Shown here in pieces: positions 298 through 16,587 of a DNA stretch of 64,000 nucleotides (positions are counted from its first letter, which is position 1; every line of letters starts with the position of its first letter). The stretch covers positions 1,178,001 through 1,242,000 of the forward strand of contig NZ_CP083757.1 in assembly GCF_020149935.1 (NCBI RefSeq), written 5' to 3'. A program made the translations under genes and the position numbers. Origin of the DNA: Marinilongibacter aquaticus. GTDB taxonomy: Bacteria > Bacteroidota > Bacteroidia > Cytophagales > Spirosomataceae. The notes below the pieces were generated by a model. The model was not told the DNA's origin. It was given only the letters and a program-made list of their open reading frames with translations, and ran no database searches.

Positions 298-301
298 GTT
301 T

Positions 302-823
302 CTAAAAGAATTTACTTCCCCAATTAATACATTTTGATAGTTCACGGTTTGTTATACCTATACCATTTCTAGCATTTCCTGAAACCCCCATTTGTCTATA
401 AGCCTCAATTTGAAGCTGCTCACTTCCTCTTATAGCCCAATATGCAGGGTCATTCAATCGGCTCGCAAAACCCAAAGGAACTACAGATTGAGCCGCTGTG
501 GAAAGCTGTGCAGCACCATACCCCTGAGCATTCATATGATGCCCGTAATCCCGATTTTTCACAATTGTGGCTGGATCACCAAACCCACTAGTTCTGCCCA
601 CATAAATTTTTCCATCCTTGCTCGTATTGGTGTAGGTAACGTAATAAAACGCTCCCGGATCAAAGTTCCGTTTTAGATAATCAACAGCTTCCGGCCCATA
701 TAAGAGAATCCCGCCTACTGCCGCACCAACAGCATGCACTGCCCATTTTTGAGGAACCACATCCGTCGGTTCTGGTACAGTTAAATCTGCCGTTATTTCG
801 GCTAAAATTAGTGCCCCTGCCTG
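302..823 (-). pseudogene. Orphan Rhs C-terminal toxin module with GIY-YIG-like nuclease motif
   Basis: The frame is open from a TAG at 824-826 down to the stop at 302; the only start-like codon is a GTG at 760, so it has no convincing start of its own. It begins with a hydrophobic linker (AGALILAEITADL) like the pre-toxin part of Rhs tips. It then carries YYVTYTNTSKDGKIYVGRTSG, which fits the two strands of a GIY-YIG nuclease (YYV...YVGRT), followed by R and paired H residues (NRDYGHHMN). Read as a displaced toxin tip kept behind the current one, able to be recombined onto an Rhs core. The family call is by eye. A candidate immunity gene follows at 1-297. Confidence 0.55.
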
Positions 824-862
824 CTATGCTTTACTTTCTTAGGAAAGGAATAGGGTAATCTT

Positions 863-1204
863 CTATTGGCTTGCTTCCCAGCAACTAATACAAAGAACCA
901 CTCCTAAATCTCCTAGTTCTTTCATTATTTTTGGCTCAAATTCCATATTACACTGGCCTTCATATTCATAATAGTTCCAAACGGAAATATCATCAGAAAC
1001 AATCCCTATTTCAGATAATTGGTCTTTATTTTCATTTATTATTCCTACAAAATCATACAAAGCAGCGACACTATTTTTTTCATTTTCGTCAATTATGCGA
1101 TCCCAGATGTTGGGATTTTTATGATTAGACTCTCCTAGGAATTGTGTTAACAGTTCTTTGGTTTTATAATTACAATCAATTTGTAGTCTGCAAAAACTTC
1201 CCAT
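863..1204 (-). CDS. Candidate immunity protein of the Rhs toxin (113 aa)
   Basis: Starts at ATG 1204, two bases after the stop of the Rhs/toxin frame that ends at 1207, so the two are tightly coupled. The product is 113 residues, acidic and soluble, with an alternating pattern near the end (EPKIMKELGDLGVVLCISCW) slightly reminiscent of DUF4279-type immunity proteins. That resemblance is weak. Role inferred from gene order: toxin tip then immunity gene. Base composition is AT-rich like the toxin tip and unlike the GC-richer Rhs core segment at 1,800-2,240. Confidence 0.55.
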   Translation of the reverse strand: MGSFCRLQIDCNYKTKELLTQFLGESNHKNPNIWDRIIDENEKNSVAALYDFVGIINENKDQLSEIGIVSDDISVWNYYEYEGQCNMEFEPKIMKELGDLGVVLCISCWEASQ

Positions 1205-1206
1205 AT

Positions 1207-2272
1207 TTATTCGCTTTTAAAAAAATCTAATGAATTCAATTTTGTATTAAATGATTTACCCATGTAAGGGCTATTTTTTGTACCTGTTAAAATTATTTTT
1301 CCGTTGACAATTTTAATGTCAGGGTTGTTGCCAACAATATTTTTATAGCTTCCCGATGATTTTAGGATGTCTGGTTTAATAGTACTATGAAAAACATCTC
1401 TATCTACTGCAATTCGTCCAAAATATAATAGCTTACTTGATCTGGAGCCAGCAATTACAACATTGGAAAAAGAAGCTTTTTTTCCCCTCAAAAGGCCAAC
1501 TAAGGAAATCGATAGTCTTATCCTGTCTTCAAGAGAACCATTTGAATATATCTCTTTGACATTTTCGGGAGCATCTTTAATTCCATTCCACCACTCCGAA
1601 AGACTTTCAGGATCATTTTCGTTTGCCGGGCGGATAGGCACTAAGGCATCGGCTAAATCTTTAATTCCGGATGAAATTCCATCAAAGATTTGCTGTGAAG
1701 CACTCTTCTGATCTGTATTACTATACACTCCATAATACTGATTCGACGTACTGCTGTTTCTGCCGCTCAGGGTCTGGTAGCCGTTGGAGTACTGGAAATC
1801 CGTCCTTGCGGTATCCAGCCCGAAGGGATCGACAAAGGAAAGCGGATTGTTTATCACGTAGGCATAGCCCGAAACGCCATTGTTCTTGTCGGCCAGGGCA
1901 TCGATGCCCCAGAAACGCCCCAGTCGCCAGATCATCGTGTATGCCTTGTACCCTGAGCAGGTTGTCGGACAGCGTTGAAGGAGCGAGGCCCGATGAAGTG
2001 ATGTACGAGTACACCTCGATCCCCAAAGGCGTATACTCGGCCGGTAGGCAGCCCGTGTACCCATTGCCCGGGCCGTACAGGCCATGTGGCGTATGTCTAT
2101 CAAGATATCCGGCTTCAGGTTCTGGATAAGCGTTTTTGCGGGATTTGCCGAAGCATCGTTGTGGTATTCGTTGCAGACCATGGCGACCCTCTGCCTGCAG
2201 TCGACAAGTTGGGCAGAGGAAAGTGCGGGAAGCACGAGCATTGAGATATAAATTACGGTAAAAAAATTTCAT
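1207..2272 (-). pseudogene. Degenerate Rhs/YD-repeat protein, C-terminal end with toxin tip
   Basis: The 3' half keeps the Rhs core signature (RLGRFWGIDALADK, then GYAYVINNPLSFVDPFGLD near 1,810-1,900), followed by an AT-rich variable tip ending in FHSTIKPDILK...NPDIKIVNGKIILTG, which I read as the toxin domain (family not identified). The 5' end is broken. ATG 2272 with a 7-T run gives nonsense, but removing one T yields a clean signal peptide (MKFFTVIYISMLVLPALSSA). A second frame change is needed near 1,950, where one frame reads APSTLSDNLLRVQG and the next continues RLGRFWG. It is far shorter than normal Rhs proteins (over 1,000 aa). Likely a deleted, frameshifted remnant serving as a reservoir of the toxin tip. 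Confidence 0.7.
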
Positions 2273-3069: not shown

Positions 3070-3238
3070 TTTTGGTGGATTTAATGTTTTTCAGGAATGA
3101 TTTAGTCAGTTTAATATTAACACTTTAAGTTCATATTTTCAATTATCCGTTTTTAACGGTTAAGAAACAGTTATAAACGTTTGTTAGCGGATAAACTGCT
3201 CAGAAAACCTTATTTTTCTGTAAACAAACCATGTGGAA

Positions 3239-4375
3239 ATGGCAAAGCCCACCATTATAATCTATCAGGCAGAAGAGAACAGCTCCAGAATAAAGGTGCA
3301 AATACCCTATGTGATGAAAACTGAGCGTGAAAAGTTCAAGACCTTTCATTCCGCATTTTATCATCCGAATCAAAAGCTTTGGAGCATCATCAATACAGCC
3401 GAAAACTGGGAAAGGCTCCAAAAGGAATTTGAGCATAAAATTGAGATTAAAAAACTGGCAAAATTTAGGCCCTTACCTCAAAAAACAACAAACGAAAAGA
3501 TTCAAGCTGAATTGGCCAAAGCAGAACAAAAATTGATTTTGAAAGCTTTTAGCCCAAATACCATAAAAGCTTACATGAACGAGATAAAAACCTTTTTCTC
3601 CTTTTTCGAAACCCGAAATTTTTCTGAGATAAACAAAGCGGAAATAGAAAGTTTTATCTACCACCTGATTAGCAAATACGGTATCTCAGAAACCAAGCAA
3701 AATATGTGTATCAACGCCATAAAAGCATATTACGAGCATGTTTTAGGTCAACCAAGGGAATATTATGATATCCAGCGACCGAAAAGATCGCTAAACCTGC
3801 CCAATATTTTAAGCAAAAGCGAAGTGGCAAAGCTGCTTCAAACTCCCAAAAACATCAAACATAAAGCCATACTTTTTTTGATATACAGCAGCGGATTACG
3901 CATAAGCGAAGCCATTAACTTACGCGTGAAAGATATCCATTCAGCAGACGGCTATATTTTTATAAAGGCCGCAAAGGGCAAAAAGGATAGAAGGACCGTG
4001 CTTTCTCCCATACTCCTAAAGCTTTTGCGTGAATATTACAGAGCCCATAAGCCGTCTTATTGGCTGTTTGAAGGCCAAGAAGGCGGCCAATATTCTGCTA
4101 AAAGTATTCAAAATACCTTTCGAAAAGCGGTAACAGAAGCCAATGTAAACCCTTGGGCTACAGTACATACTTTGCGTCATAGCTTTGCCACGCATCTACT
4201 GCAAGAAGGCACAAACCTGCGGTATATTCAAAGTCTACTTGGCCACAGCAGCTCCAAGACCACAGAAGTTTATACACATGTGTTGGCTATCAATAATAAA
4301 AATATCAAGAGCCCATTAGATTTTCTGGGCGATTTCGGTATTTCTGGTGAAGGTGAGCCAAAGTCCGGCCCGTAG
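3239..4375 (+). CDS. Tyrosine recombinase of the cassette array (IntI/XerC-like)
   Basis: The product has 378 residues from ATG 3239; a GTG at 3233 is an alternative. Order: an N-terminal domain of about 80 residues (AFYHPNQKLWSI), a SAM-like core-binding domain (LKAFSPNTIKAYMNEIKTFF), then the catalytic domain with Arg in SSGLRISEAINLR, Lys in AAKGKKDRR, HTLRHSFATHLL, LGHSSSKTTEVYTH and the final Tyr. The tail THVLAINNKNIKSPLDFL resembles the end of IntI integrases (YTHVL...SPLD). I do not see the extra segment that distinguishes IntI between the Lys region and the HxxR box. It is followed 49 bp later by the first cassette junction and is co-oriented with all cassettes, unlike most integrons. 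Probably cuts the folded attC-like sites annotated downstream. Confidence 0.85.
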   Translation: MAKPTIIIYQAEENSSRIKVQIPYVMKTEREKFKTFHSAFYHPNQKLWSIINTAENWERLQKEFEHKIEIKKLAKFRPLPQKTTNEKIQAELAKAEQKLILKAFSPNTIKAYMNEIKTFFSFFETRNFSEINKAEIESFIYHLISKYGISETKQNMCINAIKAYYEHVLGQPREYYDIQRPKRSLNLPNILSKSEVAKLLQTPKNIKHKAILFLIYSSGLRISEAINLRVKDIHSADGYIFIKAAKGKKDRRTVLSPILLKLLREYYRAHKPSYWLFEGQEGGQYSAKSIQNTFRKAVTEANVNPWATVHTLRHSFATHLLQEGTNLRYIQSLLGHSSSKTTEVYTHVLAINNKNIKSPLDFLGDFGISGEGEPKSGP

Positions 4376-4404
4376 ACAATAGAGATATGCGAATGTTTTG
4401 TAAT

Positions 4405-4432
4405 TTGTGGGGGATATACAAATGTTAGCTGC
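4405..4432 (+). other. attI-like primary insertion site and first cassette junction
   Basis: The segment GGATATACAAAT followed by GTTAGCTGC (GTT at 4424-4426) matches the right half of every attC-like site downstream, whose shared form is ATATACnA-ACC-GTT. The bases after the G, TTAGCTGC, are exactly complementary to GCAGCTAA at the end of the first cassette (5443-5450). No left half (AACAATGTATATAAG) precedes it, as expected for an attI rather than an attC. It lies just beyond the 3' end of the recombinase gene. Confidence 0.65.
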
Positions 4433-4448
4433 AACCTGAAAAAACAGA

Positions 4449-5450
4449 ATGAATAAATACATTAAATACGGGATTCTTATTTTAGTTGGTTCGATTCTAA
4501 CATTTCTTTTTTGGAAATTTCCTGCACCTGATGATAGAATATTAAATATTCAGAACTACTTAATTACCGTGGGTGGAATTATGTCGGCATTCATTATTGC
4601 TTACTTGTCTGGTAAATTATTCAATTTAAAAACTGATAGAAATAATAGACAACTTCAAATCGACAAATTAGGCGAAAGGCTTACTGCGTTTAGGCAGTTA
4701 ATGTACTTCATAATGAATAGCCACGATTTTTGGAACAGATATTCTGATATTGCCAAATTCAAGAAAGAATATCCAAATTTTGATTATTATCGACTTCGCG
4801 GAGACGGAGAAGACGAACTTCGTCAAAAATTTTGGCTTGACGAAAAAAATATTTCCCAAAATACAATATCCTTGTATACAGCAATGGAAGCTATTTATGA
4901 CACCAAAGATAAAACACTAATTCCTTGGGCGTACGACAGAACTACTCATTGTAGATATACAATAGATGACCTTTCAAATTATCACGAACCCTCAAACCAA
5001 TTATGGTACTACCTTGATGGTAGGTATGCAAAACACGGCAAAGGACTTTTCAATGATGAAGGTCTATCAATTTTATTCCAAGAAAATTATAAGGCATTAA
5101 TTTCAATTGCTGACATAAAGCATAAGGGAAAAGATTTTCACAGACTTATTATTGCGGATTTAGGAACAGAGTTCTACGAATATGTTATACCCAAAATGGC
5201 GGAATTAATAAATCAAAACACTGGAATTCCAAAAGGACTCTTAAAAACCTTTTATAGTTTACTTTCCATAATGTTATTTGGAGTAATTCTACCCTTGATT
5301 TTACAATCAATGCTTGTGTCAAAATGCTTGAACTCGACATTAACATTAATTTTTGTGAACTTAACGACTATATCTCTTTTATATTTTTTATTTGAGTTTT
5401 ACGACTTACTGAAAGATGAATTAGAAACGAATAGAAAAGGCAGCAGCTAA
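4449..5450 (+). CDS. Cassette 1: membrane protein of unknown function (333 aa)
   Basis: Two membrane segments lie near the N-terminus (residues about 7-24 and 37-55) and two near the C-terminus (about 267-290 and 295-317). Between them is a soluble, charged region rich in aromatic residues. This 2+2 arrangement suggests an inner-membrane protein with a large central, probably cytoplasmic, domain. I recognise no family. The start lies 24 bp into the cassette and the stop overlaps the R'' of its own attC site, so the cassette is almost entirely this gene. Membrane-anchored cassette products are often phage-defence or stress proteins, but nothing here proves that. Confidence 0.8.
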   Translation: MNKYIKYGILILVGSILTFLFWKFPAPDDRILNIQNYLITVGGIMSAFIIAYLSGKLFNLKTDRNNRQLQIDKLGERLTAFRQLMYFIMNSHDFWNRYSDIAKFKKEYPNFDYYRLRGDGEDELRQKFWLDEKNISQNTISLYTAMEAIYDTKDKTLIPWAYDRTTHCRYTIDDLSNYHEPSNQLWYYLDGRYAKHGKGLFNDEGLSILFQENYKALISIADIKHKGKDFHRLIIADLGTEFYEYVIPKMAELINQNTGIPKGLLKTFYSLLSIMLFGVILPLILQSMLVSKCLNSTLTLIFVNLTTISLLYFLFEFYDLLKDELETNRKGSS

Positions 5451-5582
5451 CAATGTATATAAAAAATAGGCGAAATAGTAATAAAAACAAAGGTTTTGGC
5501 TCGTATCAAACTTTGCGATTAACTGAAAGTTTCGTGCTTCGAAATCGCCTACTTTTCATATACTAACCGTTGTCGGTAATGC
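5443..5582 (+). repeat. attC-like site 1
   Basis: Left half GCAGCTAAC-AAT-GTATATAAAAAATAGGCG; right half CGCCTACTTTTCATATAC-TAACC-GTT (junction 5569). The arms GTATATAAAAAATAGGCG and GTATATGAAAAGTAGGCG (reverse complement of the right half) pair, with a conserved A/C mismatch after GTATAT. The left spacer is 3 nt and the right one longer, giving the unequal unpaired spacer typical of attC. An apical region of about 70 nt is variable. Confidence 0.75.
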
Positions 5583-5619
5583 TACCAAAATAACCAATGC
5601 ACTTTACAGAAAATAAAAA

Positions 5620-6351
5620 ATGAATGAAAATGATATTAAAAGAATTTCACGACTGTCTGCAATTCTAACACAGTTACAAACGAAACGCCTTTTGACAGCC
5701 ACAGAATTGGCAGACAAATTTGCAGTCAGTGTACGTACTATTTACAGAGATATCAGAGCTTTGGAACAAGCTGGTGTACCTATCCTAACGCAAGAAGGGA
5801 AAGGCTACACTTTAATGGAAGGGTATAAAATACCACCTGTAATGTTTTCGGAAAGTGAAGCCAATGCCTTGATTACAGTAGAACAATTAGTGCATAAAAA
5901 CAGAGATAGCTCACTTACTAAGGAATACACGGAAGCCATCAATAAGATAAAAGCTGTTCTACGATATTCCACAAAAGAAAAAGTAGAATTGCTGTCAAAA
6001 CGAGTTGCAGTTAGTCCTGCCATGTCGGGTGCAAATACGAGTAACTCGTTAATGCTAGTTCAAAATGCTTTAACAAACTTCCAAGTGCTTAACATCACCT
6101 ATCAAGGCGAAAATTCAAATGAAAAAAAGGAGAGACTGATAGAGCCTTTTGCGTTGTATTACAGTTTGCAAGAAAATTGGACCCTTATTGCTCATTGTAG
6201 GTTAAGAGAGGATTACAGAATGTTCCGGTTGGACAGAATACTAAAAATCCATCAAACGGAAGCAACATTCAATCCTCATACGATTACATTACAGGAGTAT
6301 CTGGCAGAAAAACAAAAAAAGTTCAAAACCCCTGACACACAGCTGTCATAA
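5620..6351 (+). CDS. Cassette 2: HTH/WYL-domain transcriptional regulator
   Basis: The product has 243 residues. An N-terminal DeoR/HTH_11-type winged helix covers about residues 8-65 (TATELADKFAVSVRTIYRDI; GVPILTQEGKGYTL). A WYL effector domain follows in the C-terminal half (ERLIEPFALYYSLQENWTL; YRMFRLDRI). WYL regulators sense small ligands or nucleic-acid-related signals and often control neighbouring genes. Here the neighbour, 41 bp downstream in the same cassette, is a VOC-family protein, so a regulator/enzyme pair travelling together is likely. The start lies 51 bp inside the cassette. Confidence 0.85.
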   Translation: MNENDIKRISRLSAILTQLQTKRLLTATELADKFAVSVRTIYRDIRALEQAGVPILTQEGKGYTLMEGYKIPPVMFSESEANALITVEQLVHKNRDSSLTKEYTEAINKIKAVLRYSTKEKVELLSKRVAVSPAMSGANTSNSLMLVQNALTNFQVLNITYQGENSNEKKERLIEPFALYYSLQENWTLIAHCRLREDYRMFRLDRILKIHQTEATFNPHTITLQEYLAEKQKKFKTPDTQLS

Positions 6352-6392
6352 CCTGAAATTACCTTTACTGCCTAACTTAAAATCTTAAACAA

Positions 6393-6803
6393 ATGAGTTT
6401 AGTATCCATTCGCATTATTACAGCCAATATAAACGGCTTGATAAAATTTTATGAGCAAGTAACAGGTATGCCGATAGTTCAATACACTCCTGATTTTGCA
6501 GAACTACAAACAAAAACAGCAACTTTAGCGATAGGGAGCACACGAACATTACAGTTTTTTGGGGGCGAAAGTGTGGCACAGGCTTCACAAAACCGTAGTG
6601 CTATTATCGAATTTTTGGTAGATGACGTAGAAAAAGATTACGAAAGGTTAGCTGATTTTCTGCAACCATACATCGTTCAGAAACCAACAACGATGCCCTG
6701 GGGAAACAAATCACTTTTATTCCGTGACCCTGACGGTAATTTAGTCAACTTCTTTACACCAACAACTCCAGAAACAATTAAAAAATTTGAAGGCAAAAAA
6801 TAA
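6393..6803 (+). CDS. Cassette 2: VOC (glyoxalase/bleomycin-resistance) superfamily protein
   Basis: The product has 136 residues with the paired beta-alpha-beta-beta-beta layout of the VOC fold. It begins SLVSIRIITANINGLIKFYEQVTG and ends LLFRDPDGNLVNFFTP, the typical last metal-binding strand (E/N position here NLVNFF). The usual final Glu ligand is replaced, so it may bind a drug or other ligand rather than catalyse a glyoxalase reaction. Cotranscribed with the WYL regulator upstream. Its stop codon is immediately followed by the R'' bases of attC site 2. Confidence 0.85.
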   Translation: MSLVSIRIITANINGLIKFYEQVTGMPIVQYTPDFAELQTKTATLAIGSTRTLQFFGGESVAQASQNRSAIIEFLVDDVEKDYERLADFLQPYIVQKPTTMPWGNKSLLFRDPDGNLVNFFTPTTPETIKKFEGKK

Positions 6804-6947
6804 GCACTAACCGCCAACAATGTATATAAGCCATAGCGGATTTTGTGCTTCGTCTATGGCTTTTTTGTATATTTATGGTTTGTGCTAAATCGAAAAATTA
6901 GTTTGTAATCCGCTACGGCTCATATACGATACCGTTGTGTGTAATGC
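6804..6947 (+). repeat. attC-like site 2
   Basis: Left half GCACTAACCGCCAAC-AAT, then GTATATAAGCCATAGCGG; right half CCGCTACGGCTCATATAC, then GATACC-GTTGTGTG (junction 6934). The arms pair over about 21 bases with two mismatches, one of them the conserved A/C after GTATAT. The apical region contains TTTGTGCTTCG and a T-run. Confidence 0.75.
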
Positions 6948-6948
6948 G

Positions 6949-7863
6949 ATGAAAAACTTGGAAAACATAAATAAAATTGTTGGAATTAATTCAAAAGCAT
7001 CTGAATTATCAAAATTAGCTGAACAAATGAATTTCGTTCCAGAAAGTATTCGCGTAATGATTGAAAGACAAAACCAAATAATGGCGAATATTCCAAAAAT
7101 TGAAGTTCCCGATTATAATTTCCCGAAACTTAATATACCGAATTTTGACCATTTAAAATTGAGCTTTCCTGAAATTAATATTCCAAAGTTTGACTTTGCA
7201 AACTCGGAATTACTTGAAACACTCAAGAAGTTCTCAAAAATTGGAGAACGAATTAAAAATAATCCCGAATTACAATTTGCATTTATTAGCGACCTTGAAA
7301 TCTTAAACTTAAAATCCGCAGAAGAATTCAAAAAGTCATTAACTAGTGATTTGACAGACGAGGACATTCAACAAAAAGAAGAACTTTTAAATGAAAATCT
7401 AATTCCATATTTAGAAGAACTTGGTCTTGAAAGTTTATGGCTTGGAGCTAATCAAGTTTTAGAATCAAAATCAAATCCTGACAAATTAAGACATTGTTTA
7501 ATCTCACTTCGAACAATTCTAGAGTATCTGATTGATGAAAAACTTGCACCAATGGATATGCTGAAAAACTCGTCAATGTTTGAGAAAGAGTTTAGAAAAT
7601 ATCATTTAGGGAAAAAAAGAATTGAGTTCATCAAAATAAAGAGAGAACAAAAAATTGAGTACTTCACATCAAAAATTAAATTTGGAATGCTAGAAGAGTT
7701 TACCAAAAATGAAATTCAATACGTGTGTGACTGTTATTCTGTTCTTTGCAATGTTCATCAACCGAATGTCGGAATTACAAAAAACCAAGTTAGAAGTTTA
7801 AAAGTTAAAACAGGAATAACGATTTGGTTATTAGCGTATTTAAATAAAATAATTGAAAATTAA
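6949..7863 (+). CDS. Cassette 3: unknown protein with PxxNIPxFD repeats and helical C-terminal domain
   Basis: The product has 304 residues from ATG 6949, only 14 bases after the cassette junction; an in-frame GTG at 6937 lies inside the attC core. Residues about 45-90 hold a short repeat with a Pro-hydrophobic rhythm (VPDYNFPKLNIPNFDH; LSFPEINIPKFDF). The rest is mostly helical and charged. The segment LWLGANQVLES...NPDKLRHCLISLRTILEYL resembles the GA..L.S.NPD..R...SLR pattern I associate with HEPN-like or pPIWI-associated nuclease domains; this is recollection, not a search result. The possible link to phage defence is tentative. It is the only gene of its cassette. Confidence 0.8.
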   Translation: MKNLENINKIVGINSKASELSKLAEQMNFVPESIRVMIERQNQIMANIPKIEVPDYNFPKLNIPNFDHLKLSFPEINIPKFDFANSELLETLKKFSKIGERIKNNPELQFAFISDLEILNLKSAEEFKKSLTSDLTDEDIQQKEELLNENLIPYLEELGLESLWLGANQVLESKSNPDKLRHCLISLRTILEYLIDEKLAPMDMLKNSSMFEKEFRKYHLGKKRIEFIKIKREQKIEYFTSKIKFGMLEEFTKNEIQYVCDCYSVLCNVHQPNVGITKNQVRSLKVKTGITIWLLAYLNKIIEN

Positions 7864-7864
7864 A

Positions 7865-8010
7865 GCACTACACACAACAATGTATAACCGCAATTACGGC
7901 GGATTCGACTACGTCCGAATCCACTCGGAATTGCTAAGGTCTGTGCCAAACAGAAAATTAACGCATATTAACCCGTAACTGACGGTTATACGAGACCGTT
8001 GTAAGCAATT
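7865..8010 (+). repeat. attC-like site 3
   Basis: Left half GCACTACACACAAC-AAT, then GTATAACCGCAATTACGG; right half CCGTAACTGACGGTTATAC, then GAGACC-GTTGTAAG (junction 7998). The arms pair with an extra unpaired base in place of the A/C mismatch seen in the other sites. The apex contains a small inner inverted repeat GGATTCGactacgtCCGAATCC. Confidence 0.75.
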
Positions 8011-8022
8011 AAAACAAACGTC

Positions 8023-8832
8023 CTGCTAAAAGAATATTCCATATCGGACATTATAATATCCAATCCAAAAGAAAAGTTTTTCTACGTTGGAACCTTTGAA
8101 GGAACGGAAGACCCAAACGTAGAATGGCCACACAGACACGACTTTTATTCACTCGTTTGGTTTACAAAAAGTACAGGAATTAATGTTATAGACTTTGAGG
8201 AATATGAAATCAAACACAACAGGCTTTTCCAAATGCGACCCAAACAGGTTCATAATTGGTCCTATTCAAAAAACTCGAATGGTTATATTATCGTTTTTGA
8301 CAAACATCTTTTAGAGCAAACAACTGATTTTGTTAACAAAGCATTTTTTGATTTATCCGACAGAAATACAAAATTTCTAAAACCACTATTTGAAAATCTT
8401 ATCGAAGAGTTCAATAAAAATGACCAATTGAGCGAAAAAACAATCGTTCAAGGAATTTCATATATGTTACTTCAACTAAAAAGGTTATCAAATGAAAATC
8501 CTAAAAACAAGGGAATTAAACCAAAAACTATTTTAGAGTTTTCAAAATTAGTATCAGATAATATTTGCGAAAATGTTTCTGTAAACGAATATGCGTTAAA
8601 ATTGAATTTGACCATTGATAAACTCAATGAAATCTGTAAGGAAAATTATGGACAAAGCCCTAAAACAATAATCTTGGAAAAGAAAATAACGGAAGCCAAA
8701 CGATTGCTTTATTTCACGGATTTATCAGTAAAGGAAATCGCATTTCGATTAGGATTTGAGGATAGTTCGTATTTTTCAAGAATATTCAAACAAAAAACAA
8801 ACCTTTCACCCACCAAATTTAAAAGTGCTTGA
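8023..8832 (+). CDS. Cassette 4: AraC-family regulator with non-ATG start
   Basis: The C-terminal half is a standard AraC double helix-turn-helix (VNEYALKLNLTIDKLNEICK; VKEIAFRLGFEDSSYFSRIF; LSPTKF). The first ATG, at 8233, would remove the N-terminal sensor domain, but the frame stays open upstream to a TAA at 8002. The upstream translation is coherent cupin-type sequence (FFYVGTFEGTEDPNVEWPHRHDFYSLVW), with the PHRHDFY box typical of AraC sensor domains. The true start must therefore be non-ATG: CTG at 8023 or ATT at 8008, both within 30 bp of the cassette junction. The coordinates use the CTG. It pairs with the downstream CMD-like gene. Confidence 0.7.
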   Translation: MLKEYSISDIIISNPKEKFFYVGTFEGTEDPNVEWPHRHDFYSLVWFTKSTGINVIDFEEYEIKHNRLFQMRPKQVHNWSYSKNSNGYIIVFDKHLLEQTTDFVNKAFFDLSDRNTKFLKPLFENLIEEFNKNDQLSEKTIVQGISYMLLQLKRLSNENPKNKGIKPKTILEFSKLVSDNICENVSVNEYALKLNLTIDKLNEICKENYGQSPKTIILEKKITEAKRLLYFTDLSVKEIAFRLGFEDSSYFSRIFKQKTNLSPTKFKSA

Positions 8833-8893
8833 AAATCTGGAAAAAGTCCTGTAAACGAACTTCCTGTAACCCTTATTTTTGCCTAAAAACAGA

Positions 8894-9367
8894 ATGAAAT
8901 ATTTATCAATTGTAATATTTACTTTATTCATTGCCGTAAGTGGATATGGGCAAACAAAAAATCAAGCAAAAATGGACAGTACAAAATCAGAAAGATTTGA
9001 ACGAGGTTGGAAAAAATTAAAAGAAATTGACGGAGAGGCTGGAGAAAAAGTAATTGAAAGCTTAAAAGATGTTTCGCCAGATTTGGCAAAATACACAATC
9101 GAATATCCTTTTGGAGATGTTTACAGCCGAGAAACCACTTTGGACAACCAAACAAAGGAAATTGCAGTAGTTGCGGCTTTAGCTGCAATGGGAAATGCAG
9201 AACCGCAATTAAAAGTACATATCAACGCTGCTTTGAATGTAGGAGTGACCGAAGAAGAACTTTCCGAAATTATGATTTTAATGTCAGTTTATGCAGGATT
9301 TCCTTCTGCTCTGAACGGAACTTTAGCATTGAAAGAAGTCATAGAAGAAAGAAAAGCGGATAAATAA
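8894..9367 (+). CDS. Cassette 4: exported carboxymuconolactone decarboxylase (CMD/AhpD)-like protein
   Basis: The product has 157 residues from ATG 8894; a TTG at 8879 would add five residues before the signal peptide. The signal peptide is MKYLSIVIFTLFIAVSGYGQ. The CMD-type helical domain follows (LDNQTKEIAVVAALAAMGNA; HINAALNVGVTEEELSEI). No CxxC pair of AhpD peroxidases is present, so the protein is of the gamma-carboxymuconolactone decarboxylase-like type of uncertain activity. AraC regulator plus CMD-like protein is a common pairing. Its stop overlaps the start of attC site 4. Confidence 0.85.
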   Translation: MKYLSIVIFTLFIAVSGYGQTKNQAKMDSTKSERFERGWKKLKEIDGEAGEKVIESLKDVSPDLAKYTIEYPFGDVYSRETTLDNQTKEIAVVAALAAMGNAEPQLKVHINAALNVGVTEEELSEIMILMSVYAGFPSALNGTLALKEVIEERKADK

Positions 9368-9508
9368 CTGCTGACAACATTGTATATAAGCCATAAGGGT
9401 GACAAGGGTTTGCAAAGGTTTTCCCTCTTACCAAGTTTTAGCCCCAGTTGATAGGAAACAGCTTCGAAATCCCTTACGGTTCATATACGAAACGTTGTAA
9501 GCCATTTA
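9366..9508 (+). repeat. attC-like site 4
   Basis: Left half AACTGCTGACAAC-ATT, then GTATATAAGCCATAAGGG; right half CCCTTACGGTTCATATAC, then GAAAC-GTTGTAAG (junction 9494). The arms pair over about 18 bases with the conserved A/C mismatch and two further substitutions. The apex is about 80 nt. Confidence 0.75.
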
Positions 9509-9521
9509 AAAAGAGACCTAC

Positions 9522-11069
9522 ATGCAACAAAATATTTCGTCAGATAAACCAGTAATCCTAAAAGAAGAAGATAGATTTCAACGCTATGACTTCTCTGGGA
9601 GAATTGCACAGAGAATAATAAATTCAGAAAGCAATGATTCGGTTGTAATTGGAATTTATGGTGCATGGGGAGAAGGAAAAACCTCTGTGATTAATTTTAT
9701 TGAAGAGGAACTAAAAACCAATGATACAATAATTCCAATTCGCTTTAATCCATGGAGATTTACAGAAGAAGCTACACTTTTAGTTTCGTTCTTTAATACC
9801 TTAGCATCTAAAGTAAAAGAATCATTTCCTGAAAAAGAGATTGAGAAAACAAATTTCTTTTCTAAAAAGGTTTCTAATTATAAAAAGAAATGGCAGGATA
9901 GTAAAGAGCCTCTGAAATCAGATAAAGAGACAATCGGTGAATTAATTGGAAAATACGGAAAAATAGTATCAATATTTGGAGCTGGAGAGGCTGCTGAATC
10001 AATTGGTAAAGCTCTTTCAAATGTTGACATTGAGACTTTGAAAAAAAGGTTTGAAAAGTTACTTGTTGATAGTAAGAAAAAACTTGTTGTGTTTATTGAT
10101 GATATTGACAGACTTGATAAGCAGGAGATACATTCAATATTTAGACTTGTTAAATTAACCGCAGATTTTTCAAATACATTTTATATTCTTTCATTCGACC
10201 AAGAAATGGTTGCTTCTGCAATTGGAGAGCGATTTGGAGAGGGAGACAAACAAGCAGGATTCAATTTTTTAGAAAAAATCATTCAAGTTCCTCTAAAGAT
10301 TCCTGTCGCCCAACCCGATGCTCTTAAACAATACTGTTTTCAATTGGTTGATAAAGCAATTAATGAAAATCAAGTTGAGTTAAGTGAAAGTGATGTTCAA
10401 CGTTTTGTCTCAGAATTTGTAGAGAACGTATTAATAAGGTTAAAAACTCCAAGATTAGCTGTTCGCTATGGTAATACTCTTTCATTTTCATTTCCGTTAT
10501 TGTATGGTGAAGTAAACCTAGTCGATTTAATGTTAATTGAAGCATTAAAAATATTCTATCCTTCACATTATGAATTTGTAAAAGATAATTCGCATTATTT
10601 TCTATCCTCTTATAGTTCCCATTCCTATTATGGTGGACATGGAGATATTGAAACAAAGAAAAAAGAAATTACAGAGTTTTTAGATGAACTTGGGAAAGGT
10701 TTATCGAGAAGGGAAAAAGAATCGGTTAAATCTTTATTATCTGAACTCTTTCCAAGATTGGATGAAGTTTTTAGGAACACATTTCATCATAATGGTCATG
10801 AGGAATGGTATAAAAACAAAAGAATTGTATCTCCTGAATATTTTAAGAGATACTTCTCATATACTGTTCTAAAAGGTGAAATGTCAGACGTTTCATTTGA
10901 CTCTTTTATAGCTTCGATAGATACTGCAAATGAGGAGCAGATTATTCAAAACTACAAACACTTAATAGAGTCAAGTTCTATTGACAATTTCTTGCATAAA
11001 TTGCGTAGCAGAAAAGAAGACTTTAAGTGGGAAACTTCACAAAAGTTAGCTTTAGGCATTGCGCTCTAA
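9522..11069 (+). CDS. Cassette 5: KAP-family P-loop NTPase, N-terminal part (515 aa) ending at an in-frame TAA
   Basis: Walker A GAWGEGKT lies at residues 47-54. A KAP-type insertion follows with a hydrophobic SIFGAGEAAESIGKAL segment, then Walker B LVVFIDDIDRLD near residue 190 and sensor region FYILSFDQEMVASAI. KAP NTPases include Kidins220 and the phage-exclusion protein PifA; bacterial members are often membrane-associated and mobile. The frame stops at TAA 11067-11069 and continues in the same frame two codons later (see 11076), so the original product was probably a single protein of about 744 aa. A phage-defence role is inference from family and mobile context. Confidence 0.85.
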   Translation: MQQNISSDKPVILKEEDRFQRYDFSGRIAQRIINSESNDSVVIGIYGAWGEGKTSVINFIEEELKTNDTIIPIRFNPWRFTEEATLLVSFFNTLASKVKESFPEKEIEKTNFFSKKVSNYKKKWQDSKEPLKSDKETIGELIGKYGKIVSIFGAGEAAESIGKALSNVDIETLKKRFEKLLVDSKKKLVVFIDDIDRLDKQEIHSIFRLVKLTADFSNTFYILSFDQEMVASAIGERFGEGDKQAGFNFLEKIIQVPLKIPVAQPDALKQYCFQLVDKAINENQVELSESDVQRFVSEFVENVLIRLKTPRLAVRYGNTLSFSFPLLYGEVNLVDLMLIEALKIFYPSHYEFVKDNSHYFLSSYSSHSYYGGHGDIETKKKEITEFLDELGKGLSRREKESVKSLLSELFPRLDEVFRNTFHHNGHEEWYKNKRIVSPEYFKRYFSYTVLKGEMSDVSFDSFIASIDTANEEQIIQNYKHLIESSSIDNFLHKLRSRKEDFKWETSQKLALGIAL

Positions 11070-11075
11070 GGAGAT

Positions 11076-11756
11076 ATGTTTAAAGAAAATCATAATGTTT
11101 TTAGCTTCGGTTTTCAAAGTCCTAAATCACAAGCCGCTATTTTTATTTATCAGCTACTAAAAAAGCATGACAATATTCAAGACCGTGTAGAACTTGCTGA
11201 AATATTAATGAAAAGAGCTACTCCATTTAGTTTTGCATATGAAATAAATAATTGGTTGAGAACTGGAAAAACGGATGAAGAAAAAATCTTTTCAGTAGAA
11301 CAATACCAACACTTGGCAAAATGTTTAATTGATAGAGCATTGCATGAATCAGGCGATACTCCAATATTTGAAAAATTCCCAGATAATAATCAATACTTAC
11401 TTTCTGTTTGGAAAGAAATAAATCCTGAAGAATTTGAGAGCTATATTAAAGGGATTTTAGATACAATGCCAAAAAAAGTTGTTGACCTATTAAGAGCCTT
11501 TACCCCTGTAATGACCAGCAGTAATCATCCAGCTCCTTATAAATCAAATTTCACAAAAGACCAATTCAATTTCTTTACTGGTTTATTTGACAAGGAATAT
11601 ATTTATGAAAAAGTAAATGAAGAATTTAGTGAGGACATTAAAAAAGAAGATGTAAAATTCCCTGATATGGAAAATACACAAACAGATTTGAATATCATGA
11701 GACAGTTTAAGCATTGGTATTTAAAAGAAAAAGAAACCATTGAAACAACTGAATAA
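11076..11756 (+). CDS. Cassette 5: C-terminal part of the KAP NTPase (same frame, after stop)
   Basis: The product has 226 residues starting MFKENHNVFSFGFQSPKSQA at ATG 11076. This is exactly in frame with the upstream NTPase, separated from it only by TAA GGA GAT. Helical, no motif of its own; the sequence across the break reads as one continuous domain. Either a nonsense mutation split the gene, or GGAGAT acts as a ribosome-binding site for coupled translation of two subunits. No separate family is recognised. The stop is followed directly by the R'' bases of attC site 5. Confidence 0.75.
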   Translation: MFKENHNVFSFGFQSPKSQAAIFIYQLLKKHDNIQDRVELAEILMKRATPFSFAYEINNWLRTGKTDEEKIFSVEQYQHLAKCLIDRALHESGDTPIFEKFPDNNQYLLSVWKEINPEEFESYIKGILDTMPKKVVDLLRAFTPVMTSSNHPAPYKSNFTKDQFNFFTGLFDKEYIYEKVNEEFSEDIKKEDVKFPDMENTQTDLNIMRQFKHWYLKEKETIETTE

Positions 11757-11901
11757 AAACGGCTTACAACATTTTGTATAAGTAGTGGCAGGGATGTGTT
11801 AAATATCAAGGTTTGTATCCCGCTCAAACTGCATAGCGGTTTGACAGGAAACTACCACGCAATCTGCCACTACTCATACAATTTACCGTTAGCGGTCAGG
11901 C
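11757..11901 (+). repeat. attC-like site 5
   Basis: Left half AAACGGCTTACAAC-ATT, then TTGTATAAGTAGTGGCAG; right half CTGCCACTACTCATACAA, then TTTACC-GTTAGCGG (junction 11888). The arms pair over 18 bases with a single mismatch, the conserved A/C. It opens the sixth cassette, whose start GTTAGCGGTCAGGC has no matching end because an IS follows. Confidence 0.75.
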
Positions 11902-11927
11902 TATGACGACACAACTGACAGAAAAAC

Positions 11928-11994
11928 ATGAATAATAAAATTGTAACCCTTGACCCTTTCCCAAAAACAAGACAGCTGAATAGTAGAGAATCCA
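11928..11994 (+). pseudogene. Start of the sixth cassette gene, cut by the IS3 element
   Basis: ATG 11928 opens a frame beginning MNNKIVTLDPFPKT that passes into the terminal repeat of the IS within about eight codons. Only the first residues can be original. What the cassette encoded is lost from this window, and no attC site 6 is visible after the IS. Confidence 0.4.
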
Positions 11995-11997
11995 AGC

Positions 11998-12801
11998 TTA
12001 TTTATTCTTTAAGATGTATTCCCTTGGGGGCATGCCCCCAAGGGAACTGTGTGGCCTGAATTCGTTATAATCTTTTTTCCAGGCTTCCAGTTTTTCCCTT
12101 GCGTCCTGTAAAGGTAAGAACCAATTGGTATTTAAACATTCATTCCTCAATGACCCGTTAAAACTTTCAATAAAGGGATTGTCGCTTGGTTTTCCAGGTC
12201 TTGAGAAGTCCAGCCCCACCTTGTTCTCATACGCCCATTTATCCAAAGCCTTGCTGACAAACTCACTGCCGTTGTCCACTTTAATTCTTTTAGGATAAGT
12301 CTTCTCCTGTCTGCAAATAGCTTCCATCTGGATCACAACATCTTCTCCTTTGATAGATTGGTCGGCATGAATTACAAGACATTTACGACTATAATTATCA
12401 ACTACAGTTAAGGCCCGGAATCTGCGGCCGTCAAAGAGCTGATCCGCCACAAAATCCATGCTCCAGCATTCGTGTAAACTTGAGGCATTCCCTTCCAATG
12501 GTTGTCGCATACGGGCAGATTTCAAGCGTTTTGAAGGCCTCCGTCTCAGATTCAGGCCTTCCCCGCAATAGATACGGTAAACACGCTTCTTGTTATCCTT
12601 CCAGCCTTCTCTACGCAATAATATCGCGACCCGGTCTATGCCATAGCGAACCCTTGTATGAGCGATCTCACGTATCCGCATTCTCAAAGCCCGATCATCT
12701 CTGCCAACAGCTTTATAGTAAAACATGCTCCGGTGATGTAACACCAAGCAACATGCACGGTTGATCGAAATCGGGTATTCCGATCTGATTTCATCAACCA
12801 A
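11998..12801 (-). CDS. IS3 transposase OrfB (DDE integrase domain)
   Basis: The rve-type DDE catalytic core is complete: Asp in CWSMDFVADQLFDG, Asp in IKVDNGSEF, Glu in NPFIESFNGSLRNECLN. An HTH_21-like region precedes it (RYGIDRVAILLRREGW). It has no good start of its own (TTG 12801). The frame is open upstream to the A8 slippery run at 12829-12836, so it is most likely made as an OrfAB fusion by -1 frameshifting. Appears intact. Confidence 0.88.
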   Translation of the reverse strand: MVDEIRSEYPISINRACCLVLHHRSMFYYKAVGRDDRALRMRIREIAHTRVRYGIDRVAILLRREGWKDNKKRVYRIYCGEGLNLRRRPSKRLKSARMRQPLEGNASSLHECWSMDFVADQLFDGRRFRALTVVDNYSRKCLVIHADQSIKGEDVVIQMEAICRQEKTYPKRIKVDNGSEFVSKALDKWAYENKVGLDFSRPGKPSDNPFIESFNGSLRNECLNTNWFLPLQDAREKLEAWKKDYNEFRPHSSLGGMPPREYILKNK

Positions 12802-12821
12802 CTCCCGTTTTTGAGCCGGTC

Positions 12822-13088
12822 TCAGAGCTTTTTTTTCAGCACATCCTGCAGAATTTGTTTATCCAGGCTCAAATCGGCAACCAGCTTCTTTAATTGGCTG
12901 TTCTCCTCTTCCAGCTGCCCGAGCCGGCGGAGTTCTGAAACCCCTACCTGCCCGTACTTTTTCTTCCAATTGTAAAAGGTTGCCTCACTGATGCCCATCT
13001 TCCGGCATACCTCCGAAACAGAGACCCCGGTCTCCGCCTGTTTCAGTGCAAATACTATCTGCCCCTCCGTGAATTTTGATCGTTTCAT
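12822..13088 (-). CDS. IS3 transposase OrfA
   Basis: The product has 88 residues from ATG 13088 (MKRSKFTEGQIVFALKQAE). HTH_Tnp_1 domain: GVSVSEVCRKMGISEATFYN, then a leucine-rich coiled coil (RLGQLEEENSQLKKLVADLS) used for dimerisation. It ends VLKKKL at an A8 run (12829-12836), the expected -1 slip site that joins it to OrfB. Confidence 0.85.
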   Translation of the reverse strand: MKRSKFTEGQIVFALKQAETGVSVSEVCRKMGISEATFYNWKKKYGQVGVSELRRLGQLEEENSQLKKLVADLSLDKQILQDVLKKKL

Positions 13089-13195
13089 AAAGCAAATCGT
13101 TCTTTTAAATGTAAAACTAATTTGCCCGAATTCCTCTACTTTCAATCTGACCGATTTAGTGGAGAGACGTCAAGAGAGACGTCACACCGCACATT

Positions 13196-14860: not shown

Positions 14861-16471
14861 ATGAAAGTAGCGGATCTGTACATTCGGGTAAGCACCGACG
14901 AACAAGCCGACAAGGGCTATTCGCAACGCAGCCAGGAGGAGCTGCTCCGCAAGTACTGCGGCATCAACAACATTTCCATCCGGCGGGTCATGTTCGAGGA
15001 CCATTCGGCCAAGACCTTCGCCCGCCCCGAGTGGAAAGCCTACCTGGCCGATTTAAGAAAGCACCGGGGCAGGGCCGGCCTTGTCCTGTTCCTGAAATGG
15101 GACCGGTTCAGCCGCAATGCCGGCGACGCCTACCAGATGATCAACACCCTTCGGAAACTGGGGGTGGAGCCACAGGCCATCGAGCAGCCCCTGGACCTGT
15201 CCATCCCCGAAAACAAAATGATGCTGGCCTTCTACCTGGCCGCACCGGAAGTGGAAAACGACCGGAGGGCACTGAACGTCATCCATGGCATGCGGAGGGC
15301 AAGGAAAGAGGGGCGTTACATGGGGCTGGCCCCGGTGGGCTACATCAACAGGACCGACGCGGCGGGGAAAAAGAGCATCGTGCCCCACGAGCCCCAGGCA
15401 GGAATCCTCAAGTGGGCCTTCAGGGAACTGGCCAAGGGCCTGCACAATACCGAGCAGGTATTCAGGAGGGCCAAGGAAAAGGGATTCAGGGGCTCCAAGG
15501 GGCTTTTCTGGTTCGCCATACGGAACCCCGTGTACTGCGGGAAGATATTCATCCCCGAGTACAGGGACGAGGAAAGCCGTTTCGTCAAAGGGCTCCACGA
15601 AAGCCTGGTCCCGGAAGACCTGTTCTACAAAGTGCAGGACGTGCTGGACGGGAGGAAAAGAAACGGGTACCGCCTGAAAATGGTCTCCAAATCCTCCCTG
15701 CCCCTGCGGGGGTTCCTGGTCTGCCCCTCCTGCGGCAAAATGCTGACCGGAAGTGCCTCCAAGGGCCAGTTCAAATACTACACCTACTACCACTGCTCCG
15801 GCGGCTGCAGGTTCAGGCACAGGGCCGACGCAATAAATGACCTGCTGGTACGCGAGCTCAAAAAGTACGTCCCCCGCCCCGAGATCGCCGGACTGTTCAA
15901 GACCGTCCTGCGGCGGACCTGGAAGGAACGCACGTCCCACCTCCGTAAGGACCGCGAAAAGCTCGCGAAAGAGATCGGGGAACTCGAAGGCAGGCTGGCC
16001 TATATCCGTGACCTACTGGTTTCAAGGCAGATCGAGCCCGAGGATTACAGGGACATGAAATCCGAATACGGCCAAAAGAAAGACCGCCTGAATGCCGAAC
16101 TGGCGGGCCTGTCCAATCGGGATGCAACTATTGAGCCACTGCTCAACAAAGCCATCGATTCGCTGTTGAAGCTCGACACGATTTACGAAAAAGCCGAAAT
16201 GGAGAAAAAACGGGAGATAATAAGTTCGATCTTCCCCGAAAAAATCCATTTTGAAAACGGGACTCTTCGAACTGTCAGAGCCAACGAAGCCATAAAGTGC
16301 ATCTACCTGATAAACAGCCAGTTACAGGCAAAACAAACAAGACAAGCCAGAAAAAATTCTGACTTGTCTTGTCAAGTCGGGGTGGCAAGATTCGAACTTG
16401 CGACCTTCTGCTCCCAAAGCAGACGCGATGACCTGGCTACGCTACACCCCGAATATCCTTTGTGTGTCTGA
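14861..16471 (+). CDS. Large serine recombinase reading through the tRNA-Pro gene
   Basis: The product has 536 residues. N-terminal resolvase domain with catalytic Ser11 in YIRVSTDEQ and the Arg-containing FLKWDRFSRNAGDAYQM. A recombinase domain follows (GYINRTDAAGKKSIVPH; NPVYCGKIF), then a zinc ribbon (CPSCGKML...CSGGC, about residues 289-318) and a coiled-coil tail (EKLAKEIGELEGRL). After about residue 490 the frame runs through the tRNA terminator hairpin and the antisense strand of tRNA-Pro (VARFELATF...) to a stop at 16471, so the last 45 or so residues are not native. The element probably lost its own stop on integration. It should still be catalytically intact. Confidence 0.85.
   Translation: MKVADLYIRVSTDEQADKGYSQRSQEELLRKYCGINNISIRRVMFEDHSAKTFARPEWKAYLADLRKHRGRAGLVLFLKWDRFSRNAGDAYQMINTLRKLGVEPQAIEQPLDLSIPENKMMLAFYLAAPEVENDRRALNVIHGMRRARKEGRYMGLAPVGYINRTDAAGKKSIVPHEPQAGILKWAFRELAKGLHNTEQVFRRAKEKGFRGSKGLFWFAIRNPVYCGKIFIPEYRDEESRFVKGLHESLVPEDLFYKVQDVLDGRKRNGYRLKMVSKSSLPLRGFLVCPSCGKMLTGSASKGQFKYYTYYHCSGGCRFRHRADAINDLLVRELKKYVPRPEIAGLFKTVLRRTWKERTSHLRKDREKLAKEIGELEGRLAYIRDLLVSRQIEPEDYRDMKSEYGQKKDRLNAELAGLSNRDATIEPLLNKAIDSLLKLDTIYEKAEMEKKREIISSIFPEKIHFENGTLRTVRANEAIKCIYLINSQLQAKQTRQARKNSDLSCQVGVARFELATFCSQSRRDDLATLHPEYPLCV
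16337..16372 (-). terminator. Terminator of the tRNA-Ser/tRNA-Pro unit
   Basis: ACAAGACAAG (16337-16346) pairs with CTTGTCTTGT (16363-16372), extended by CAGAA/TTCTG with one mismatch, around an A4 loop on the plus strand. Read on the minus strand, the hairpin is followed by TTGTTTTG. It lies directly after tRNA-Pro. Confidence 0.7.
16377..16451 (-). tRNA. tRNA-Pro (anticodon TGG)
   Basis: On the minus strand the acceptor CGGGGTG pairs with CACCCCG, discriminator A. The anticodon arm is TCTGC-TTTGGGA-GCAGA with anticodon TGG. The T arm is GCAAG-TTCGAAT-CTTGC. CCA is not encoded. 75 nt. Second gene of a two-tRNA unit. Confidence 0.93.
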
Positions 16472-16500
16472 GTGGCTTTCTCACTCCCAAACACCTCTTG

Positions 16501-16587
16501 CGGAGGGAGCGGGATTCGAACCCGCGGTACCGTTGCCGGTACGTCAGTTTAGCAAACTGGTGGTTTCAGCCACTCACCCATCCCTCC
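16501..16587 (-). tRNA. tRNA-Ser (anticodon GCT)
   Basis: On the minus strand the acceptor GGAGGGA pairs with TCCCTCC, discriminator G. Anticodon arm CAGTTTGCTAAACTG with anticodon GCT. The long variable arm (GTACCGGCAACGGTAC) is typical of class II tRNA-Ser; T arm GCGGG-TTCGAAT-CCCGC. 87 nt, no encoded CCA. Confidence 0.93.

What the first reader, a model, noticed from the sequence alone, without database searches (positions are those of the whole stretch)
3239..11950. Integron-like cassette array in a Bacteroidota genome
Five complete units, each ending in a folded attC-like site of about 145 bp, sit downstream of a tyrosine recombinase. All genes are co-oriented, and the cargo is a mix of unrelated accessory functions. 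In each unit the first 9-14 bases are the reverse complement of the R''-like bases at its own end and not of its neighbour's, which is what circular cassette excision requires. I do not know of a described system with this recombinase type and these sites; whether it is new must be checked.
Basis: partly seen in the sequence, partly recalled or inferred. Interest (0 to 1): 0.95.

Follow-up and report, generated by a model that had tools for sequence, protein, structure and literature searches.

The report
Integron with an I2-less recombinase
A Bacteroidota chromosome carries five gene cassettes in a row behind a recombinase that likely inserts and swaps them although it lacks the protein part held to be essential for that job, and sites of the same kind are found in 187 of 392 genomes sampled from its phylum.

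Summary
Five cassettes (window 4425-11888), each ending in a 126-130 nt foldable site, follow a tyrosine recombinase (3233-4375) that is IntI-like but lacks the I2 insertion. Each cassette starts with the reverse complement of its own site's left end: in two sets of 51 and 103 cassettes 7.6 and 8.1 of 11 bases agree, against 3.7 and 3.4 in shuffles. Paralogous platforms in the same genome are alike up to G|TT and then diverge. In two other genomes a cassette is duplicated from G|TT to G|TT. A covariance model finds such sites in 187 of 392 genomes of the phylum; in the window's class none of 73 site-bearing genomes has a canonical IntI over cut-off. The folded sites carry a near-invariant G.T wobble in each half-site (127 of 129; 87 of 89). 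I read this as a widespread I2-less integron family, not found in ten literature searches (no preprints held). That the recombinase acts, and on the folded bottom strand, is inferred, not tested.

The parts
3233..4375 (+). tyrosine recombinase, 380 aa (or from ATG 3239); IntI-like but without the I2 insertion
   Evidence: Pfam PF00589 138.5 bits; TIGR02249 217.5 bits, under its 265 cut-off, in two stretches, broken at profile 181/239; 15 aa where IntI4 (2a3v) has 58
4413..4426 (+). attI-like site, GATATACAAATG|TT, cut point behind 4424
   Evidence: four own-genome platforms (window included) identical over -20..-1 and a fifth 16/20, then divergence
4425..5569 (+). cassette 1
   Evidence: start GTTAGCTGC pairs with own left end
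4449..5450 (+). 333 aa protein, no family hit
5447..5574 (-). attC-like site 1 (folded strand -)
   Evidence: R1 129.8 bits, R2 132.1 bits
5570..6934 (+). cassette 2
5620..6351 (+). HTH_11/WYL regulator
6393..6803 (+). glyoxalase-like protein
6814..6939 (-). attC-like site 2
6935..7998 (+). cassette 3
6946..7863 (+). predicted pPIWI-associated nuclease
   Evidence: PF18165 43.4 bits
7874..8003 (-). attC-like site 3 (held out of model R1)
   Evidence: R1 E = 1.6e-8
7999..9494 (+). cassette 4
8233..8832 (+). AraC-type regulator (the frame may begin upstream)
8894..9367 (+). carboxymuconolactone decarboxylase-like protein
9374..9499 (-). attC-like site 4
9495..11888 (+). cassette 5
9522..11069 (+). 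KAP P-loop ATPase, PifA-like
   Evidence: PF07693 183 bits; PADLOC PifA 272 bits
11076..11756 (+). 226 aa protein, no family hit
11766..11893 (-). attC-like site 5
11889..11997 (+). start of a sixth cassette, apparently interrupted by the IS3-type element that follows (minus strand)
   Evidence: IS3 family recalled, its exact end not mapped

Best explanation
Window 3233-11888 holds an integron-like platform, made of a tyrosine recombinase gene without the IntI-specific I2 insertion, an attI-like point just behind its stop codon and five cassettes that each end in a foldable attC-like site, and the recombinase likely inserts and excises the cassettes at the G|TT points. Shown: the anatomy, the pairing of each cassette start with its own site's left end, the sharp G|TT edge of paralogous platforms in this genome, G|TT-to-G|TT cassette duplications in two other genomes, the covarying stem, the position of sites downstream of related recombinases, and the lack of an IntI over cut-off in this genome. 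Inferred: the recombinase is the enzyme of the array; [quoted passage not shown] the conserved G.T wobble in each half-site (A.C on the other strand) marks the strand to be used, the task that extrahelical bases and I2 have in classical integrons.
For: Held-out site found at E = 1.6e-8. Own start against own left end 7.63 of 11 versus 3.69 shuffled (sd 0.24, highest of 20,000 4.69; 51 of 69 sites usable); in other genomes 8.14 versus 3.43 (sd 0.16, highest of 10,000 4.03; 103 of 113 neighbouring pairs usable). Type A platforms: window, L046, L048, L049 20/20 alike over -20..-1, L047 16/20, then 4-15 of 20 over +4..+23; type B: two copies 20/20, then 10/20. Duplicated cassettes: L221 784 of 786 bases inside, 23/55 and 16/47 outside; L223 655 of 677 inside, 31/60 and 22/58 outside. 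52 of 52 sites found around 80 named relatives' recombinases are downstream and on one strand; they lie in 16 of the 80 loci. 8 of 13 site-bearing regions with enough contig have an I2-less recombinase at the 5' end of their sites. No IntI over cut-off in this genome nor in any of the 73 site-bearing genomes of the class (counted by hand). Covariation: 772 double-change cells versus 249 shuffled (sd 14). G.T at one inner-stem pair in 127 of 129 sites, and its counterpart in the outer stem in 87 of 89 cassettes.
Against: No recombination was observed. I2 is reported as necessary for cassette capture (PMC7790495, introduction and one discussion section read). In 5 of 13 regions no recombinase was found in the 5' sequence fetched; in one of the 8 positives it lies 8.6 kb off, in another only a 147-aa open frame remains. 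64 of the 80 named recombinase loci show no site, among them Bacteroidota loci with several kb downstream such as L117, L122, L132, L133, L134 and L137; the array-associated recombinases do not form one clade. In the own genome the other platforms found carry broken recombinase remnants. The bottom strand folds better in only 97 of 129 sites (1 equal) and 4 of 5 of the window's, so energy alone marks the strand weakly. One of 12 IntI loci (L239) has four strong sites of this kind about 4-6 kb away, another (L237) one weak site; 40 of the 114 site-bearing genomes of other classes also carry IntI. The array was not seen gaining or losing a cassette between close strains: none was at hand.
Confidence: 0.83

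Rival explanations
1. The arrays are CALIN-like clusters built by canonical I2-bearing IntI acting in trans or in earlier hosts; the neighbouring recombinase is a passenger.
For: 5 of 13 site-bearing regions have no recombinase in the sequence fetched; canonical IntI over cut-off occurs in 107 of 392 genomes of the phylum and in 40 of 114 site-bearing genomes of other classes.
Against: 0 of 73 site-bearing genomes of the window's class have IntI over cut-off; 10 of 12 IntI loci have no such site at E <= 1e-3 in the flanks fetched, up to about 10 kb; sites sit downstream of, and oriented with, I2-less recombinases in 16 named loci; the attI-like edge lies right behind the I2-less gene in the own genome, and the best match to the first cassette's start lies 31-162 bp behind it in 11 of 16 named arrays.
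Confidence: 0.08
2. The sites are recombined as double-stranded DNA by the usual two-strand exchange, so folding is a by-product of their palindromic sequence.
For: The recombinase lacks I2, which is held to allow single-strand substrates (PMC7790495, introduction); its best fold matches are Xer proteins; several attI-like regions carry palindromes (seen by eye).
Against: The stem covaries through compensatory changes while its sequence varies, and one inner pair stays G.T in 127 of 129 sites, which a double-stranded reading does not explain; the cassette edge splits the outer stem as in attC.
Confidence: 0.12
3. The host's XerC/XerD resolvase recombines the sites, as with elements that exploit Xer.
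For: Sites occur in regions without a dedicated recombinase in the sequence fetched.
Against: Adjacency and orientation of a dedicated recombinase, the attI-like edge behind it; dif-like sites were not looked for.
Confidence: 0.05
4. The sites are dispersed intergenic repeats or terminators with no cassette function.
For: Similar sites are scattered over many genomes, some genomes with a single match.
Against: Own-start pairing far beyond shuffles, platform edges at G|TT, duplications from G|TT to G|TT.
Confidence: 0.02

Closest known systems
Integrons with IntI, attI and attC cassette arrays (mobile and chromosomal)
   Same: Adjacent tyrosine recombinase, attI-like point, co-oriented cassettes with G|TT edges, folded sites with R/L stems and a spacer of unequal arms, arrays of up to 17 sites in one stretch here (L221).
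   Different: No I2 insertion (58-67 versus 99-105 residues between two catalytic motifs); sites of about 128 nt whose complementary end reaches 9 bp plus 3-4 bp beyond a fixed mismatch against 7 bp recalled for attC; equal inner-stem arms without an extrahelical base in 102 of 129 sites but a near-invariant G.T wobble in each half-site.
Treponema chromosomal integrons
   Same: Integrase transcribed toward attI in the direction of the cassettes (PMC3607928, passages), like the window's type A.
   Different: Described as integrons with intI (PMC3607928, passages); their I2 was not examined here.
XerA / archaeal Xer-like recombinases
   Same: Best relatives among solved structures by sequence and fold together with IntI4 (4a8e, 5hxy, 2a3v); 4a8e and 5hxy align without the I2 gap.
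   Different: Not known to me to have cassette arrays (recalled); the window protein has an N-terminal extension of about 90 residues without a Pfam hit.
CALIN elements
   Same: Clusters of attC-like sites without IntI.
   Different: An I2-less recombinase and an attI-like edge are present here.

Membership tests
Integron (IntI type) | Tyrosine recombinase next to the array | tested here: met
   related loci
Integron (IntI type) | IntI-specific additional domain (I2, around patch III) | tested here: not met
   held as defining and necessary in PMC9668308 (passages) and PMC7790495 (introduction)
Integron (IntI type) | attI site with a G|TT point next to the integrase gene | tested here: met
   position from own-genome paralogues and from the first cassette's pairing in 11 of 16 named arrays; activity untested
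Integron (IntI type) | attC with R and L stems | tested here: met
Integron (IntI type) | Unpaired central spacer between R and L | tested here: inconclusive
   arms of unequal length, 5-8 against 2-3 nt in 129 sites, but I set the spacer unpaired in the model, and RNAalifold pairs part of it by G.U
Integron (IntI type) | Two or three extrahelical bases in the L stem (PMC2727003, passages) | tested here: not met
   inner-stem arms equal in 102 of 129 sites, one base longer on the 5' side in 16; the commonest extra base occurs in 21 of 129; a 1-nt bulge occurs in the outer stem of 24 of 89 cassettes
Integron (IntI type) | Cassette start complementary to its own site's left end | tested here: met
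Integron (IntI type) | Cassettes move as units with G|TT edges | tested here: met
   duplications in L221 and L223, none in the window's own array; the event itself was not observed
Integron (IntI type) | Recombination of the folded bottom strand | not testable with these tools
   fold energies only lean that way: 97 of 129
CALIN | No integrase near the attC cluster | tested here: not met
   no IntI over cut-off, but an I2-less recombinase at 3233-4375

The most novel reading that the evidence does not exclude
Bacteroidota have their own integrons: gene-cassette capture by an I2-less recombinase that picks the bottom strand of a hairpin by one G.T wobble per half-site. Cassette recombination would then either predate I2 or have arisen twice, and I2 would be a later refinement of one branch and not the innovation that made integrons possible.
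Probability: 0.55. Interest if true: 0.95.

Novelty: new variant of a known kind. Interest (0 to 1): 0.88.

Why it matters
At least some published surveys recognise integrons by IntI with its additional domain (PMC2426708, PMC9668308, passages), so a system without it would be missed. If these arrays work, many Bacteroidota genomes hold integron-like gene reservoirs (sites in 187 of 392 genomes sampled), and the account that I2 made cassette capture possible becomes directly testable with a natural enzyme that lacks it. The G.T wobble offers a concrete second way to mark a strand.

Tried and rejected
Rfam at gathering score gave only two tRNAs in the window. A search of 222 family genomes with the array found matches in 42 (own genome included), mostly to single genes or single sites; no genome was seen to share the array, but only two candidates per genome were scored, so this is weak evidence on fixed order. 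The longest matches are homologues of the cassette 2 gene pair at 68-73% in three genomes (G524, G044, G493). Of the 20 loci returned I checked 18 for sites (not the own one nor the site match L212): one strong hit (L204) and three weak ones (L206, L213, L200), none in those three genomes. A genus search with the large array L221 gave, in 13 of 41 genomes (itself included), matches of about 110-170 bp at sites and no shared cassette at E <= 1e-40, with seven candidates scored per genome. The first alignment misplaced site 3, so it was left out of model R1 and became a test. Strand choice by fold energy was tried and is weak. An SOS link was looked for in PMC8565304 (passages) and gave nothing on integrons of this phylum. 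IntegronFinder's own attC model could not be run, so whether it would call these sites is unknown.

Dropped rows: 18 of 69 sites (no known start in the locus, or no GTT/AAC where expected); 10 of 113 neighbouring pairs; 5 opposite-strand mirror hits of 134 (one search counts all 134); 2 of 15 genomes' regions (L222, L223) from the recombinase count because their contigs are short (L217 and L218 are one region). In one search, 3 of 22 hits are opposite-strand mirrors, leaving 19 sites. The 89 cassettes were chosen for at least 5 of 6 matches at positions 4-9, so only later positions are free of that choice. The hand counts rest on the tables (at most 8 candidates scored per genome; at most 5); the overlap of 40 was recounted from handles copied by hand.
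Full report
What is there. The window is bases 1178001-1242000 of a 4.64 Mb single-contig genome. At 3233-4375 (+) lies a 380-aa tyrosine recombinase; behind it, on the same strand, five units of 1-2 genes each end in a palindromic site. The sites are 126-130 nt long (5447-5574, 6814-6939, 7874-8003, 9374-9499, 11766-11893); each ends in a G|TT point (5569, 6934, 7998, 9494, 11888), and a further G|TT at 4424 opens the first unit. A covariance model R1 from four sites finds the fifth at E = 1.6e-8.

The cassette rule. In an integrated cassette the site is split: its last bases belong to the next cassette's start, so a cassette's first bases should pair with the left end of its own site. In the window the five units score 9, 6, 10, 9, 10 of 11 free positions for own, and 2, 4, 5, 7, 2 for the neighbour. 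Over 51 cassettes of this genome and of named relatives the mean is 7.63, with a shuffled mean of 3.69 (sd 0.24, highest of 20,000 shuffles 4.69; 18 of 69 sites dropped). Over 103 cassettes in other genomes it is 8.14, shuffled 3.43 (sd 0.16, highest of 10,000 4.03; 10 of 113 pairs dropped).

attI. The genome holds four more platforms of the same kind with broken recombinases (L046-L049). Three are 20/20 alike with the window over the 20 bases before G|TT and the fourth, L047, 16/20; after GTT agreement falls to 4-15 of 20 over the next 20 bases. A second arrangement, with the recombinase divergent from the array, is present twice in L045: 20/20 alike before G|TT, 10/20 after, at the places predicted from the cassettes' own ends. 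In 16 arrays of named relatives the best match to the first cassette's predicted start lies 31-162 bp behind the recombinase stop in 11, and 280-1395 bp behind it in 5.

Cassettes as moving units. In L221 (a genome of the same class, genus g53) one cassette occurs twice, with 784 of 786 bases alike from G|TT to G|TT and 23/55 and 16/47 just outside. In L223 a 677-bp cassette occurs twice, with 655 of 677 bases alike, and 31/60 and 22/58 outside; the 31/60 lies within the preceding site, which resembles its counterpart. These edges are the predicted cut points.

How common. R1 gave 22 hits at E <= 1 in this genome, 3 of them mirror images, and hits at E <= 1e-3 in 29 of 61 family genomes, the own one included. 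R2, built from 41 sites, finds sites in 187 of 392 genomes of the phylum at E <= 1e-4, with at most 8 candidates scored per genome; some have a single match. Large arrays exist: 134 hits, 5 of them mirrors, in 16 stretches of up to 20 kb, with 17 sites in L221 and 15 in the 9.6-kb contig L223.

The recombinase. It scores 217.5 bits against the integron-integrase model TIGR02249 (cut-off 265) in two stretches, and the match breaks at profile positions 181/239. Against IntI4 (2a3v) it has 15 residues where IntI4 has 58. Between two catalytic motifs the count is 58-67 residues in I2-less proteins and 99-105 in IntI; of 120 close homologues 118 could be measured and all have 58. No gene in this genome passes the IntI cut-off (genome 95.75% complete). 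In the phylum sample 107 of 392 genomes do, but in the window's class only one, G103, and it has no site at the threshold; by hand count of the tables, 73 genomes of the class (own genome included) have sites and none of these has IntI over cut-off. In the other classes 114 genomes have sites and 40 of them also have IntI. In a tree of 97 recombinases the 29 with I2 form one group (SH-aLRT 99, quick search, root not inferred). The 23 array-associated I2-less ones lie outside it but need 10 changes, so they are not one clade; two of them (L141, L146) are placed next to the IntI group (86). A structure model (mean pLDDT 78, pTM 0.48) has archaeal Xer, XerA and IntI4 as best matches, with low TM-scores (0.39 or less over the query for these), so its domain arrangement is unsure.

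Linkage of recombinase and sites. Around 80 recombinase loci of named records R2 gave 52 hits in 16 loci, all on the same strand and all downstream of the recombinase, though flanks of up to 10 kb were searched on both sides; 64 loci gave none. Of 13 regions of other genomes with enough contig (one, G381, with a single site), 8 have an I2-less recombinase at the 5' end of their sites: five co-oriented (L219, L231, L245, L246 and L247, the last a 147-aa open frame; L245 is 8.6 kb off) and three divergent (L225, L227, L248); 5 have none in the sequence fetched (L219 read). One more recombinase-like frame, in L217, is not at an array's 5' end. Around 12 canonical IntI genes, R2 sites at E <= 1e-3 occur in 2: four strong ones in L239, one weak one in L237.

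The fold and its mark. On alignment A7 (134 rows) 95.4% of cells pair; 772 cells have changes on both sides against 249 shuffled (sd 14), and slid controls fall to 31-49% paired; the alignment was fitted to the structure, which favours it. After dropping 5 mirror hits, one inner-stem pair is G.T in 127 of 129 sites; in A6 it is 132 of 138. The models were trained on sites with this wobble, which leans the search toward it. In the outer stem, made of a cassette's start and its own left end, the counterpart appears in 87 of 89 well-matched cassettes: 63 in register and 24 after a one-base bulge. The two wobbles are the 11th base of the outer and the 12th pair of the inner stem, and so roughly two-fold symmetric about the core (inference from their positions). 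On the opposite strand they read A.C. I infer that they mark the strand. In canonical attC extrahelical bases do this, though deleting them lowers strand choice more than recombination itself (PMC2727003, passages), and I2 docks them (PMC7790495, introduction).

Literature. Ten searches of the held open-access library (no preprints) showed no I2-less integron in the listings. [quoted passage not shown] PMC2426708 (passages) picked intI by its additional domain or patch; PMC9668308 (passages) calls that domain defining and necessary; PMC7790495 (abstract, introduction and one discussion section) says that I2 is necessary for capture and not found in any other protein. PMC8138268 (passages) notes that the insertion is not fully conserved in its integron-like group yet calls it essential for integron function. 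PMC8618304, PMC3607928 and PMC8565304 were seen in passages. Co-oriented integrases are known from Treponema (PMC3607928).

Verdict. The finding is real and its reading as an integron-like system is well supported. It fails one defining test of IntI integrons (I2) and one of attC sites (extrahelical bases), so I call it a new variant: an I2-less integron family. What the enzyme does, and on which strand, awaits an assay.

Noticed in passing
window 1-2272: RHS-core-like coding sequence with short downstream frames on the minus strand, as in Rhs-type loci (family recalled, not searched).
   Followed up: no
window 11998-13145: Two neighbouring minus-strand frames that look like an IS3-type transposase; they seem to cut the sixth cassette.
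   Followed up: no
window 14861-16587: A 536-aa serine-recombinase-like protein (by eye) whose end overlaps the first of two tRNA genes, 16377-16451 and 16501-16587: possibly an integrated element's end.
   Followed up: no
window 6946-7863 and 9522-11069: The KAP ATPase of cassette 5 matches the PADLOC PifA model at 272 bits and cassette 3 carries a pPIWI-associated nuclease domain: possible phage-defence cargo.
   Followed up: partly
L045:2556-3284 and 10528-11255: Two incomplete copies of a divergently oriented I2-less recombinase platform, each opening onto a different cassette.
   Followed up: partly
L045-L049: The other platforms found in this genome carry broken recombinase copies while the window's is intact.
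   Followed up: partly
L114, L118, L123, L126: Perfect or nearly perfect palindromes of about 18-30 bases lie 5-8 bases before the G|TT of the attI-like region in several relatives (by eye).
   Followed up: no
L239:3039-5707: Four sites of this kind lie about 4-6 kb upstream of a canonical I2-bearing IntI, in an orientation that does not fit a usual array of that IntI.
   Followed up: no
A7, alignment column 28: 21 of 129 sites carry one extra base in the 5' arm of the inner stem a few pairs from the wobble, perhaps a minority extrahelical base.
   Followed up: no
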